Source of the DNA: Saprospiraceae bacterium
Lineage (GTDB): Bacteria > Bacteroidota > Bacteroidia > Chitinophagales > Saprospiraceae
DNA: 64,000 bases
Assembly: GCA_958295895.1 (NCBI GenBank)
Contig: CATQHI010000011.1
Span: forward strand, 1-64,000
Direction: 5' to 3'
Shown: positions 39,163-43,402 of the stretch, piece after piece
How the letters are laid out: every line of letters starts with the position of its first letter
How positions within the stretch are numbered: position 1 is the stretch's first letter
The notes under the pieces: generated by a model
Told to the model about the DNA's origin: nothing
Seen by the model: only the letters and a program-made list of their open reading frames with translations
The model's database searches: none
Made by a program: the position numbers and the translations under genes

Positions 39163-40398
39163 CTATTCTTTCCGGTCCGAGAGCCAGACCATTATCCGCT
39201 GCGCAATGACCCGCAGCCACGCCTCCCCCGCTTCCCCTACCGGGAGGTATAGCACACTGCCCTCCCGAACACCCTCGCGAGCCCGGCTCTTCTCAAATCT
39301 ACCCAGCAACTTCCGTGGCTCGGTAGGTCCTCCAGGTAGTAACAGCGCCGTCCGCCGGGCCCCGAACTGCGTACCGTACACGTAAAGTTGCCGCAGATCC
39401 TGGGCACTGGGCTGACCGCCGGGAAGTATTTTCCACTTCGCGTCCAGGACAACCGTCTGCGTAGCATTACGTAGCACAATATCGGGACGCAACTGCGCAG
39501 TACCCCACGCCGAGCGCCAGTACGTACGACTGAGCTGCGCCAGCACCTCATACTCAGGCAGATGGCGACGCAGTGCAGTAGTCAAAAAACGCTCCCACAG
39601 TCCGTTCATATCGAAGAGGAGGGCCAGCACGTGGTCCCGCCCGCCGGCTACATCGGGGTGGTAGTTGAGTAGCAGGAGGCGGGCAATGGTGAGCGCCGCG
39701 GCGTACGGACGGGTCTTACGGGTAAGGGGTAGCCGCTCGAATGTAGCCGCAGTCACCGGGATCAAGGGCAGGTCCGGAAAACGGTGCTTCAATTTACGTA
39801 AGTTACTAGCTATCAATGTGTTACCGGCTAATTCCTCAGCAATTATCAACCCCTGGCGGATAAGCTGATTGTGGACGAAAGCGTGATCGTATACACTACG
39901 GGCGGTGTAAAACCGCTCGCGGTGCACTAGGTTATGCCGTAGCTGCTCGCTGAAGACGAGCTTCCCCCGCAGGGCGGTTTCGTTTTGCTCCCTGGTGCGG
40001 TAGCGGCGGGCTAGTCCCCGTTGTAGCAGCGTAGTCACTTCCCGGGCATACAACTCCAGGTACAGATCCAGCAAGTCACTGGGGCGGGTACGCAGGTGCG
40101 AAGCGGTAGGTGCGGCTACCGGGAGCCCGTCGACGACCCGCAGCATATCCAGCAGGCGATCGCGCCAGAAGGGGGCCGGGCGGTCGCGGTCCGTTTTGGG
40201 CAGAATCTCCAGGTGGAGCTGGCCGATACGCAGTACGCCGACGTAGGAGGTAAGGACGATGCCCCGGTAGCAAAGGTCGAAATAGCGTTGCGGACTGGTG
40301 GCGTGAAAGCGCTGCAGGCCCTCCAGCTGAGCGGGGGTGAGCGGGCCATCGGGCTGGAGCAGTACCCGCTCGTGCTCGAAGACGGTGAGGCGGGTCAC
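39163..40398 (-). CDS. mcrC: McrC-type nuclease subunit of a McrBC restriction system
   Basis: 411-residue McrC homologue. The C-terminal PD-(D/E)xK nuclease core has LRPDIVLRNATQTVVLDAKW (Asp, then DAKWK). The N-terminal half contains the McrB-interaction region with LRIGQLHLEILPKTDRD. It cleaves DNA when bound to the GTP-driven McrB motor at modified cytosine sites. Its ATG overlaps the mcrB stop by 4 bases (ATGA), so the two are an operon. Target modification cannot be deduced. No methyltransferase adjoins, consistent with a modification-dependent type IV system. Confidence 0.9.
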   Translation of the reverse strand: MTRLTVFEHERVLLQPDGPLTPAQLEGLQRFHATSPQRYFDLCYRGIVLTSYVGVLRIGQLHLEILPKTDRDRPAPFWRDRLLDMLRVVDGLPVAAPTASHLRTRPSDLLDLYLELYAREVTTLLQRGLARRYRTREQNETALRGKLVFSEQLRHNLVHRERFYTARSVYDHAFVHNQLIRQGLIIAEELAGNTLIASNLRKLKHRFPDLPLIPVTAATFERLPLTRKTRPYAAALTIARLLLLNYHPDVAGGRDHVLALLFDMNGLWERFLTTALRRHLPEYEVLAQLSRTYWRSAWGTAQLRPDIVLRNATQTVVLDAKWKILPGGQPSAQDLRQLYVYGTQFGARRTALLLPGGPTEPRKLLGRFEKSRAREGVREGSVLYLPVGEAGEAWLRVIAQRIMVWLSDRKE

Positions 40399-42596
40399 AG
40401 CAGGGCGTCGAGGGCGGAGAGAAACTCGTCGTCGGTCAGCTGGACCAGATCGAGGAGTCGGTAGCGGGGCGCATCGTCGGCAAACTCCAGCGTGGTACCC
40501 TCGGCGAACGGGGTGACGGTATCGAGCCGCTCGAAGAAGCCCGTGCCGAGTATCAGGCGTAGCTTAGTAGCGTCGCCGAAGAAATACTCCTCGAGTAGGG
40601 GTACTACCTGACGGGTAAATACGGCCCGCAGCCCGGCTACCGATCCATCCAGCCCCAGAAAATAGGCGTGGCCGATGCGGTGGTCCTTGTCGAGCAGGCG
40701 CTCGATGCGGTCATTGAGGGTGCGCAGTAGCTGGGCTACGGAGATGCCGGCTACCTCCAGCCCATCGAGTAGCTCCGGCCGGGCGGTGATCTCACGGAAG
40801 GTGAAGCGGCGGCGCAGCGCACTGTCCAGGGCCTCCACGCTACGGTCGGCGGTGTTCATCGTACCGATCAGGTAGAGGTTGGCGGGGATGCCGAAGGTGT
40901 CGCGGCTGTAGGGCAGGGTGACGGTGAGCTCCTCCGGCCGGCCCAGGCGCTTGTCGGGCTCCAGCAGGGTGATGAGCTCGCCGAAGACGCGGCTGACATT
41001 GCCGCGATTAATCTCGTCGATGATGAGTACATAGTTACTGGAGGCCGGGCGGTGATCGTGCTCGCGCTCCAGCCCGGCCCGTACGGCGGCCTTGTCCATG
41101 CTGTAGACGGTCTGTACGCTGAACTGTCGGCCGTACACCGGTTTGATGGGATAGGCGATGTCCCTGAACAGCCACCGCACCGGCCGAAACTGGGAGTAGC
41201 GGATGGGTGCGTCGGGTTTATAGTAGTAGTCGCCCGTCACGACCCCCACGGCCCGGATGGTCTGTAGTCCGTCGGGTACGAACACCAGATCGCCCACCTG
41301 CATACTGACGGCGAAGGTGCGTACGGCGGTGACCTCGTAGCTGTTGTACGCCTCACCTCCCGCGCGCTGCTGCCGGATACGGGCTAGGATTTCCTTCTCG
41401 TTGTGCACCCCGGTGAAGTCGACATCACTACCGTAGCCGAGGCTGATGCAATCGTTGGATATGCAGTACTCATAGATGCCGGCGTCGTTCGGATTCCGGA
41501 TGTCTCCTAGCGACATCTTATAGGGCTGGGCGCGGCGGATGAGTTGCTTGTCGATGCGTAGTCCGGCCCGGGTACTGGCTGCACCGGCCGCCTGATTGGC
41601 GGTTGTCACCGTTTGCACCAGCTCCTTAAACATGCCCGGCACCAGGGCAAAGCCCAGATCGGTAGGTGCCTCATCCACTTCGGTGCCAAGCCGGGGTTTG
41701 ATCCCCTCCACGAAGTCCTCGTAGCTCAGGCTCTGGTGGAAGGTGGTGAAGACGATGCGCCCCTCGGCCAGTAGGCGGCGATACTCCTCGCGTACCTGGC
41801 TACGGCTACGTTCATCTACCGGAAAGGCCGGGTTGGTGATGCGTACCGCCTCGTTGACCGTTTCGTAGGTCTTGCCGGTGCCGGGCGGGCCGTAAAAGAT
41901 CTGGTTGAGGGGGGTGCCGGGGTCACGGTCGGGGGGGCGGGCGGGCGCTCCGTACGGTACTGGGTCTTCGGCGAGTTGGTCGGACAGGACATCGTCGCTG
42001 CCGAGCGCCTGCCGCTGTTCGACCAGCTCCTGCATGCGGCTGAACTCCGCGGCGCTGATGCGGTGGGCCTCAAAGTCGGGATAGTCCTGTTTGACCTCCG
42101 CGATGAGGCGGTCTACGGTGGGGAGGAAGGCCAGCAGGTCCTCCTCGGCGTCGGCGAGCAGGTGATTGGGGGAGCGGTAGGATTTTTCCTTGCCTTCAAT
42201 AACCAGCATTTCATCCTTCGTTCCGCTGCGCTGTGACTTAGCGCGTTGGAGTAACGGATCCTTGACATTCCTAAGTTGTTGCAGTAGGGCAAAGCAGGCT
42301 GCTAACTGCTTATCATCCCCCCCCGTACGTGGCGCCCGCATATAAAACTCATAGCTAAACTCGCTAGCCTTTTGTCTAAAGAGCAAATCGATAAGGCCAC
42401 CTGCATTCCCTGGGTACGAGATGGGTATGGTCCAGAAGGTCGTACTGAAGTAGCGCGAGTTCTCCGTACCGATAAAGAGGTCATCCTTAGCCCCCTTACT
42501 TGCCTTCTGCCGGGTGCTGAAGCGCAATTCGGGATCGGTGCGCCGCAGCCCCAGGAGCCAGTCGTAGACGGTGCGTTCGTATTCCTGGTAGGTCAC
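40395..42596 (-). CDS. mcrB: McrB-type AAA+ GTPase with an inserted EVE/PUA-like domain
   Basis: About 733-residue motor and DNA-sensing subunit. N-terminal about 220 residues form a specificity region of no obvious family. Walker A is GPPGTGKT (about 236-243); Walker B is LIIDEINRGN (about 523); the McrB signature GTMNTADRSVEALDSALRRR is intact. Typical McrB proteins have about 75 residues between Walker A and B; here there are about 285. The extra block (about 355-480) reads like an EVE/PUA-type base-modification reader: PYKMSLGDIRN, EYCISNDCISLGYGSDVDF, VGDLVFVPDGLQTIRAVGVV. The GTG at 42596, behind a TACTTTG box, is preferred over an upstream TTG. Confidence 0.85.
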   Translation of the reverse strand: MTYQEYERTVYDWLLGLRRTDPELRFSTRQKASKGAKDDLFIGTENSRYFSTTFWTIPISYPGNAGGLIDLLFRQKASEFSYEFYMRAPRTGGDDKQLAACFALLQQLRNVKDPLLQRAKSQRSGTKDEMLVIEGKEKSYRSPNHLLADAEEDLLAFLPTVDRLIAEVKQDYPDFEAHRISAAEFSRMQELVEQRQALGSDDVLSDQLAEDPVPYGAPARPPDRDPGTPLNQIFYGPPGTGKTYETVNEAVRITNPAFPVDERSRSQVREEYRRLLAEGRIVFTTFHQSLSYEDFVEGIKPRLGTEVDEAPTDLGFALVPGMFKELVQTVTTANQAAGAASTRAGLRIDKQLIRRAQPYKMSLGDIRNPNDAGIYEYCISNDCISLGYGSDVDFTGVHNEKEILARIRQQRAGGEAYNSYEVTAVRTFAVSMQVGDLVFVPDGLQTIRAVGVVTGDYYYKPDAPIRYSQFRPVRWLFRDIAYPIKPVYGRQFSVQTVYSMDKAAVRAGLEREHDHRPASSNYVLIIDEINRGNVSRVFGELITLLEPDKRLGRPEELTVTLPYSRDTFGIPANLYLIGTMNTADRSVEALDSALRRRFTFREITARPELLDGLEVAGISVAQLLRTLNDRIERLLDKDHRIGHAYFLGLDGSVAGLRAVFTRQVVPLLEEYFFGDATKLRLILGTGFFERLDTVTPFAEGTTLEFADDAPRYRLLDLVQLTDDEFLSALDALL

Positions 42597-42604
42597 TGGG
42601 GGGC

Positions 42605-42656
42605 CAAAGTACAATGCGGTCTCCGACCGCGGCAGCAAAAGGCTGCCTCTGGCAGC
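42605..42656 (-). promoter_or_regulatory. mcrB promoter with two upstream hairpins
   Basis: TACTTTG (42611-42605, minus strand) lies 8 bases before the mcrB GTG. Upstream are two perfect hairpins: GCGGTC/GACCGC (42616-42630, 3-base loop) and GGCAGC/GCTGCC (42631-42647, 5-base loop), the latter overlapping GGCTGCCTCTGGCAGCGCT (42641-42659), the same repeat as at 3395-3413. Either hairpin may terminate the DUF1963 transcript or form a regulatory structure. Confidence 0.5.
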
Positions 42657-42689: not shown

Positions 42690-43402
42690 CTAATTCCCCC
42701 GCTCCGGATGCCGCGCAAACATCAGACTACCACTGTCGATAACATTAAGCCCCGCCTTAGTATCGGAGCTGATCTGAAGCACGAACTCGAACCCCTCTCC
42801 GAAGCCCGCGCCATAGTCCATGATGCCAGACTGACAGAGGGAGGGGTAGCCGCCCACCTTGTGACGGTACTCGTGCTCGGTGATATCGTAGTAGCTTTCA
42901 ATGATACCATCCTGCTCTAAGCGCAGAATCTCCTGTTCCATTTCCGGGGAGAGACCGCCGCCATCCCAGATGGGGTAGTCATCCCGTACTGCTTCGGGGC
43001 GGAGGGGGAAGGGTTTAATGTATACCGGTTCCGAGGGGGATGTAGCGGGCGTGATGGGGGTACACTGTCGTACTCTCTCACTACGTAGTACGATCCGTCG
43101 TGGGGAAAGGCGGCTGTTTCAGAAGGGGTCTGCAGTAGGTCGTTGTAGTTGACGGACAAAAAGAAGGTCAGTAGCGTGATGCCCTCCAGGGCGGGGGGCA
43201 GGTACGGTAGGTCAGCCAGGTAGAGCTGGGCCAGGGGGACCATGGGTTTGCCGTTGACATCATCAGGGATTGTCTCATCGGGACCGAAGGCCGTGACCCG
43301 CCCGATCCAGCTTTCCTCGATGGCATTGGTGGGACGGAATCCCCCGGTGGCAAAGGGGACGGCGGGGCGGGCAATGGCGGCCTTGAGTTCTGGGATCGTC
43401 AT
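42690..43402 (-). CDS. DUF1963 (YwqG-like) protein, frameshifted
   Basis: Small cytoplasmic DUF1963 protein. First part (from ATG 43402): MVPLAQLYLADLPYLPPALE, LLTFFLSVNYNDLL. Second part in another frame: HKVGGYPSLCQSG, FVLQISSDTKAGLNVIDSGS. The frames join if one base is added to the G5 run (plus strand) at 43056-43060. The frame then ends at 42690 (TAG). The next seven codons after it would read SMYFDFY before a TGA at 42666, which resembles the usual DUF1963 C-terminus. So the TAG may also be an error or mutation of TGG. Function unknown. -7 box TAAATTG (43413-43407) precedes the ATG by 4 bases. Confidence 0.72.

What the first reader, a model, noticed from the sequence alone, without database searches (positions are those of the whole stretch)
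40395..42656. McrB with an EVE/PUA-like reader inserted inside the AAA+ core
Walker A and Walker B of the McrB motor are about 285 residues apart, versus about 75 in E. coli McrB. The insert (about 355-480) reads like a modification-sensing PUA/EVE domain, and the N-terminal about 220 residues show no canonical McrB DNA-binding family. So the protein may have two different target-recognition modules. The genes are intact and overlap as in a type IV operon. Related McrB/EVE combinations are known in general; the exact arrangement and N-domain may be new.
Basis: partly seen in the sequence, partly recalled or inferred. Interest (0 to 1): 0.72.

Follow-up and report, generated by a model that had tools for sequence, protein, structure and literature searches.

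The report
McrBC restriction system, reader inside motor
A complete bacterial defence gene pair of the McrBC type carries a domain resembling modified-base readers inside its motor, an arrangement seen in many relatives, plus an unusual front domain whose relatives also occur on another defence protein, Septu PtuA.

Summary
McrB (40395-42638, -) is intact, overlaps McrC (39163-40398, -) by 4 bases, and has 287 residues between Walker A and Walker B. A domain of about 170 residues sits between the end of AAA+ helix 2 and the Walker B strand, apart from the usual helix-2 hairpin. AlphaFold2 models it confidently; Foldseek matches YTH domains (EVE superfamily). It is not rare: 70 of 74 readable loci of a scan biased towards it carry it, across several phyla. 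Insertions of likely specificity domains into McrB GTPases are already published in general (Bell 2024). Among 18 McrB frames from the own genome and relatives only 3 have this insert; a quick motor tree needs 10 switches, so the site is a swap point. The N-domain has no DUF3578 or other Pfam match. Profile searches tie it, weakly at the first step, to a family on 11 other McrBs here and on a Septu PtuA. Its model resembles type III secretion chaperone/YbjN folds (Z 5-6, suggestive only). Best reading: a type IV McrBC system with two swappable input domains; targets untested.

The parts
40395..42638 (-). mcrB-like gene, AAA+ GTPase; longest coding frame from TTG 42638, likely true start GTG 42596 (733 aa)
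   Evidence: ORF; AAA_5 6.3e-14; PDB McrB 4.5e-51; start inferred from relatives
41997..42596 (-). N-terminal domain, about residues 1-200, of a family found on other McrBs and, through them, on a PtuA
41868..41891 (-). Walker A GPPGTGKT (residues 236-243)
   Evidence: sequence
41037..41564 (-). YTH/EVE-like insert, about residues 345-520, between the end of AAA+ helix 2 and the Walker B strand
41013..41030 (-). Walker B VLIIDE (residues 523-528)
   Evidence: sequence
40845..40856 (-). NxxD GTPase signature NTAD within GTMNTADRS (residues 581-584)
   Evidence: sequence; invariant columns; motif meaning from PMC11090510 and PMC7680126
39163..40398 (-). mcrC-like gene, 411 aa, PF10117; RPD-x12-DAK (PD-(D/E)xK-like) readable; overlaps mcrB by 4 bases
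   Evidence: 7.2e-54

Best explanation
This is most likely a working type IV, modification-dependent McrBC restriction pair. McrB forms a GTP-driven ring that McrC activates and whose motion McrC's nuclease uses to cut DNA (inferred from the families). The YTH/EVE-like domain inside each McrB subunit, tethered to the motor's large subdomain, binds a modified base in foreign DNA and loads or licenses the ring (inferred). The N-terminal domain is a second, independently swappable input module that gates or directs the motor; relatives of it sit on at least one Septu PtuA. Shown: gene integrity, motor and nuclease motifs, insert position and (by model) fold class, exchange of insert and N-domain types among McrBs. 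Inferred: base recognition, gating and the ligand of the N-domain.
For: Intact overlapping mcrB/mcrC with Walker A, Walker B, NTAD and PF10117. Insert modelled at pLDDT 82-98 per ten-residue block for residues 351-510. In the full-length Foldseek search YTHDF1 (E 9.8e-3, prob 1.00) and YTHDC1 (E 1.2e-2, prob 1.00) stand among AAA+ rows. Insert profile vs 16 Pfam-EVE proteins: hhalign prob 27, E 6.7e-4 over 43 columns, against 0.6 and 0.1 for two controls. The same reader family stands N-terminal to the motor in 4 of 93 McrB frames; 3 of these (L087, L099/L117, L145) lack it in the motor and L017 has both copies. 72 of 93 frames carry the insert; the quick motor tree needs 10 label changes, at least 3 forced by starred branches. 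N-domain on 11 other McrB frames of 93, most of them in the profile by construction; 6 of 9 alignment members match PADLOC PtuA1.
Against: The window's insert has no Pfam EVE hit and only 4 of 47 copies do, best 0.0017. Foldseek did not print which model residues match the YTH chains; that it is the insert is my inference from the alignment length. The insert was not folded alone. A reader at this site is dispensable for the type: 15 of 18 McrB frames from the own genome and relatives lack it. Of five local proteins scanned, the three beside mcrBC gave only DUF1963 and a sub-threshold regulator match, so no defence island is evident. Nothing here tests binding or restriction.
Confidence: 0.7

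Rival explanations
1. The insert is a structural element: an enlarged AAA+ helix-2 hairpin or a subunit-packing domain, and the N-domain alone recognises the target.
For: McrB rings do have a hairpin inserted in helix 2 that contacts McrC (PMC7680126 passages). Many McrBs have other sequence at this site, so a base reader is not required there.
Against: In the model the hairpin (299-302, 315-318) is present and separate; the insert lies after helix 322-342 and before strand 522-527. The same domain also occurs N-terminally, outside the motor.
Confidence: 0.1
2. The N-domain is a protein sensor of type III secretion chaperone/YbjN (TY-chaperone) fold that detects a phage or host protein; the insert reads DNA. 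The enzyme needs or integrates both signals.
For: The 10 listed VIA rows with Z of 5 or more lie within residues 1-171; 9 are titled secretion or virulence chaperones, ExsC or YbjN-family proteins (8 different proteins among the 10). The family also occurs on a Septu PtuA. TY-chaperone domains have been predicted in other prokaryotic immune systems, there with a DALI Z of 5.6 for one (PMC9503650 passages).
Against: Z 5.1-5.9 is below 8, where the tool warns of common arrangements. No Foldseek row reaches E 0.001. The model rests on 9 sequences, pLDDT 79.7, and shows 3-4 clear strands, not the five-stranded meander described.
Confidence: 0.2
3. The system has drifted from DNA restriction to another role, for example RNA targeting, as proposed for CoCoNuT branches.
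For: YTH/EVE domains can read RNA (PMC7641849 and PMC11090510 passages).
Against: The motif is NxxD, not the NxD of CoCoNuTs, and McrC keeps a readable PD-(D/E)xK-like motif. I made no search for HEPN or coiled-coil partners beyond the five proteins.
Confidence: 0.07

Closest known systems
McrB/EVE (YTH) fusions of type IV restriction (Bell 2020, PMC7641849; Bell 2024, PMC11090510; T. gammatolerans McrB)
   Same: McrB GTPase combined with a PUA-superfamily modified-base reader; the 2024 census reports frequent insertions in the GTPase domain, likely specificity domains.
   Different: The sections and passages I read do not state the EVE/YTH identity or the site of these GTPase insertions, nor this N-domain; supplements could not be read.
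E. coli K-12 McrBC
   Same: AAA+ GTPase with NxxD plus a PF10117 partner.
   Different: No DUF3578 N-domain here; an extra domain of about 170 residues between Walker A and B.
Septu PtuA (PADLOC PDLC00287 type)
   Same: Relatives of the N-domain form the N-terminus of this PtuA type.
   Different: Its motor is an ABC/SMC-like ATPase (AAA_21) with a PtuB HNH partner; the window's own N-domain gave no direct PtuA hit.
TY-chaperone domains of predicted immune systems (PMC9503650)
   Same: Type III secretion chaperone/YbjN-like fold in a conflict system (passages).
   Different: There they are proteins of ADP-ribose-linked gene neighbourhoods; here a domain fused to McrB, and the fold match is only suggestive. 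The paper holds neither McrB nor PtuA (0 occurrences).
PADLOC PDC-S02
   Same: All 47 of 47 insert copies scanned match it; the window copy covers positions 16-122 of PDLC04815.
   Different: A candidate defence protein; I did not learn what the rest of that profile is.

Membership tests
McrBC type IV restriction | McrB AAA+ GTPase with Walker A, Walker B and MNxxDRS | tested here: met
   GPPGTGKT, LIIDEINRGN, GTMNTADRS; McrB PDB chains E 4.5e-51
McrBC type IV restriction | Adjacent McrC with PD-(D/E)xK nuclease | tested here: met
   PF10117 7.2e-54; RPD-x12-DAK read by eye
McrBC type IV restriction | Restriction that depends on modified DNA | not testable with these tools
   needs bench work
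E. coli-type McrB | N-terminal DUF3578 (MrcB_N) | tested here: not met
   no hit at E up to 10 for the window N-domain nor up to 1 for 9 family members
EVE/YTH (PUA-like) domain | Match over Pfam PF01878 cut-off | tested here: not met
   window no hit; 4 of 47 copies hit at E 0.1 or better, best 0.0017 (47 of 71 copies at hand were scanned)
EVE/YTH (PUA-like) domain | PUA-like fold | tested here: met
   strand/helix order; YTHDF1 and YTHDC1 at prob 1.00; matched residues not printed, insert not folded alone
EVE/YTH (PUA-like) domain | Base-binding pocket | not tested
   conserved G, Y, R, W columns were not mapped onto a pocket
CoCoNuT (NxD McrB) | NxD instead of NxxD | tested here: not met
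   NTAD is NxxD (definition)
Septu PtuA N-terminal domain family | Homology of the window's N-domain to the PtuA N-terminus | tested here: inconclusive
   window 0 hits to PtuA1; 6 of 9 alignment members hit, best 6.5e-12; hhalign window subfamily vs other McrB N-domains prob 61, vs PtuA N-terminus 34; other McrB N-domains vs PtuA 97; three controls 0.1-0.3
Type III secretion chaperone/YbjN fold | Fold match of the N-domain | tested here: inconclusive
   Z 5.9 Spa15 (rmsd 4.5, 123 aligned), Z 5.5 YbjN (rmsd 4.2, 119 aligned); all below 8

The most novel reading that the evidence does not exclude
McrB and Septu PtuA share a portable, chaperone-fold N-terminal sensor that recognises an infection protein. 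In the window's McrB it is combined with a YTH/EVE-like base reader built into the motor, making a two-signal restriction enzyme that fires only when a phage protein and modified DNA are both present.
Probability: 0.12. Interest if true: 0.75.

Novelty: new variant of a known kind. Interest (0 to 1): 0.38.

Why it matters
The AAA+ core of McrB has a site, between helix 2 and Walker B, where different domains have been swapped repeatedly; this makes motor-internal sensing directly testable by domain exchange. The N-domain links two different defence motors (McrB and PtuA) through a shared module that Pfam does not name, and it offers a small target whose ligand could reveal a trigger common to both.

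Tried and rejected
Enlarged helix-2 hairpin: rejected, hairpin and insert are separate in the model. DUF3578 N-domain: no hit. CoCoNuT: NxxD, not NxD. N-domain in viral contigs: none (no pattern match; 99 pattern matches, no relative). N-domain in plasmids: no match. N-domain in 395 class genomes and 395 phylum genomes: only the own genome in each draw. With the wider alignment 4 of 395, own included; one of these (G492) is a 22-bit hit in a long coiled-coil-like protein and I discount it. PDB sequence searches by profile: insert (A2) best 0.062, N-domain (A3) 0.026 and (A4) 0.025, all to unrelated proteins. The pdb_via look at the full model printed 50 rows, McrB and other AAA+ motor, chaperone or clamp-loader entries, so it did not test the insert. 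PDLC00287 in 247 phylum genomes: 36 with a match, every listed match starting at profile position 148 or later, so these showed no N-domain. The careful tree did not finish; only the quick tree is used. A strict sequence-box filter undercounted inserts (47 of 92) and was replaced (72 of 92).

Rows dropped: of 80 loci, six gave no Walker A/B pair by my patterns (L020, L051, L056, L061, L062, L069). Of the loci from relatives, L085, L097 and L098 gave none and are not counted. The full-length alignment A1 used 69 of 74 such loci plus the window; the insert alignment A2 used 46 of 70 plus the window, and 46 of the 70 counted carriers are in the profile that counts them.

Papers on the N-domain link: PtuA + N-terminal domain + McrB 0 papers; type III secretion chaperone + McrB 4 papers, listing only, none on defence by title; YbjN + antiphage 1 paper, opened by passages; Septu/PtuA/N-terminal domain/sensor 324 papers, of which 20 were listed and one opened by passages, without such a domain. 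PDC-S02: 4 papers, listing only. PMC12923530 (CMoRE) was opened by passages and is another enzyme.
Full report
1. Observation. The McrB frame is intact at 40395-42638 on the minus strand and overlaps McrC at 39163-40398 by 4 bases. Pfam gives AAA_5 on McrB (6.3e-14) and PF10117 on McrC (7.2e-54). The window's genome (4.77 Mb, 35 contigs) holds one match to this McrB at E 0.001. Genome G009, listed as same genus, holds what appears to be the protein of Neolewinella maritima CECT 8419, 75% identical to the window's; the acyl-CoA-ligase-like gene beside it is conserved there, 89% over 569 residues by tblastx. Likely start: GTG 42596, where relatives begin (inferred).

2. The insert. Walker A to Walker B is 287 residues. 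Against solved McrBs the extra length falls between the HQS-SYEDF block and Walker B. AlphaFold2 on a 70-row alignment gave mean pLDDT 81.5, and 82-98 per ten-residue block for residues 351-510. The hairpin of helix 2 (299-302, 315-318) and the following helix 322-342 are in place; the insert follows; Walker B is strand 522-527. Its elements are strand 358-361, helix 374-380, strand 383-386, helices 400-410 and 419-431, strands 437-441, 446-453 and 469-477, a short helix, strand 497-499 and helix 502-514. That is close to the order beta-alpha-beta-alpha-four strands given for EVE in PMC7641849 (passage). In Foldseek against the PDB with the full-length model, ranks 34 and 35 are the YTH domains of YTHDF1 and YTHDC1 (E 9.8e-3 and 1.2e-2, probability 1.00). 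The rows print no model residues; that the match is the insert is inferred. By sequence the link to EVE is thin: the window has no Pfam EVE hit, 4 of 47 copies have a weak one, and profile comparison with 16 Pfam-EVE proteins gives probability 27 over 43 columns against 0.6 and 0.1 in controls. All 47 of 47 copies match PADLOC PDC-S02.

3. How common. The genome scan kept the best 80 of 499 relatives, and some of its search peptides lie in the insert, so it favours carriers. 74 of the 80 loci give a Walker A/B pair; 70 of 74 carry the insert (46 of these 70 are in the counting profile). Organism labels on the tree include Bacteroidota, Pseudomonadota, Chloroflexota, Planctomycetota, Nitrospirota and Bacillota. 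Among 100 genomes of the own lineage, own included, 18 had a McrB match. Of 18 distinct frames with both motifs from these, 3 carry the insert (own, G009, G041; the last two dropped as copies of L002 and L011) and 15 do not. Read by eye, 13 of the 15 have other sequence between the same helix and Walker B, several of one family; L091 and L094 have their extra length elsewhere. In plasmids 291 of 72,556 records match; 19 of the 20 listed rows are a single piece running through the insert region. On a quick tree of 93 motor cores with the insert left out, the insert label (72 rows) needs 10 changes, at least 3 forced by starred branches; 500 shuffles average 19.2 and none is as low. So the site has seen several gains, losses or replacements. 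The Fig. [quoted passage not shown]

4. What is in print. PMC11090510 section 6, read whole, says that GTPase domains frequently contained insertions, likely encoding specificity domains. PMC7641849 section 9, read whole, calls EVE-McrB the most common EVE architecture in defence systems. Sections 6 and 7 of the first, section 9 of the second, and the passages I saw do not describe an EVE/YTH domain between helix 2 and Walker B; supplements were not available. I therefore call the insert a known kind, widely distributed.

5. The N-domain. The window's first ~200 residues have no relevant match in Pfam, NCBIfam, PADLOC or, by sequence, the PDB. Direct relatives: L002/L082 (one protein), L015 (Lacihabitans) and McrBs of two same-genus genomes, G014 and G015; three of these four have a different insert. 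Iterated profile search over 2,256 frames then took in L008 and a 91-residue frame in L077, and after that L007, L009, L014, L018 and L019, each within the first ~200 residues of its frame. The first link is weak (E 1.4e-3 and 5.7e-3); later ones are strong but partly by construction. An independent comparison of the window subfamily (5 rows) with 7 other McrB N-domains aligns 170 columns at probability 61, E 8e-5; with the PtuA N-terminus it gives only 34 over 54 columns; the other McrB N-domains against that PtuA give 97; three controls give 0.1-0.3. Six of 9 alignment members match within the first 180 positions of PADLOC PtuA1 model PDLC00287, best 6.5e-12; the window, L002 and L015 do not. 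Searching 395 phylum genomes with the 9-row alignment found L144: a 593-residue protein that matches that PtuA model over its whole length (2.9e-289), followed by a PtuB (3.1e-108) and preceded by a type I restriction gene. L145 from the same search is a 1017-residue McrB with the N-domain, a Pfam EVE domain (1.5e-10) and a copy of the insert-type reader, all N-terminal, near a retron-type reverse transcriptase.

6. N-domain fold. A 9-row alignment gave a model with pLDDT 79.7 and pTM 0.80. Foldseek found nothing at E 0.001. In VIA-align the 10 listed rows with Z of 5 or more lie within residues 1-171; 9 are titled secretion or virulence chaperones, ExsC or YbjN-family proteins, one as a Pseudomonas operon regulator; they are 8 different proteins. 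The best is Spa15, Z 5.9, rmsd 4.5, 123 aligned. This is consistent, but under the level at which the tool advises trust, and the model has fewer clear strands than the five-stranded TY-chaperone meander. PMC9503650 (passages) unites type III secretion chaperones and YbjN as peptide-binding TY-chaperones and predicts such domains in ADP-ribose-linked immune systems, so a chaperone-like part in a defence system has a precedent; that paper mentions neither McrB nor PtuA.

7. Mechanism. Shown: intact genes and catalytic motifs, insert position, fold class of the insert by model, exchange of both domains among McrBs. Established for the family: GTP-driven McrB ring activated by McrC (PMC7680126 passages). 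Inferred: the insert reads a modified base and licenses the motor; the N-domain is a second input of unknown ligand.

8. Verdict. Interest 0.38.

Noticed in passing
window 42690-43402 (-): A DUF1963-like gene upstream of mcrB is split over two overlapping frames (PF09234 1.4e-5 and 0.11); it looks frameshifted or is two remnants.
   Followed up: no
[quoted passage not shown]
   Followed up: partly
L145:3094-7351: McrB with N-domain, EVE and insert-type reader all in front of the motor, none in the motor, near a retron-type RT.
   Followed up: partly
L086, L089, L090, L095, L099 and others: Other, unnamed insert sequences, several alike, occupy the same AAA+ site in McrBs of the window's own lineage.
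   Followed up: partly
L144:3131-5801: Septu PtuA-PtuB pair, the PtuA carrying a relative of the McrB N-domain, just after a type I restriction gene.
   Followed up: yes
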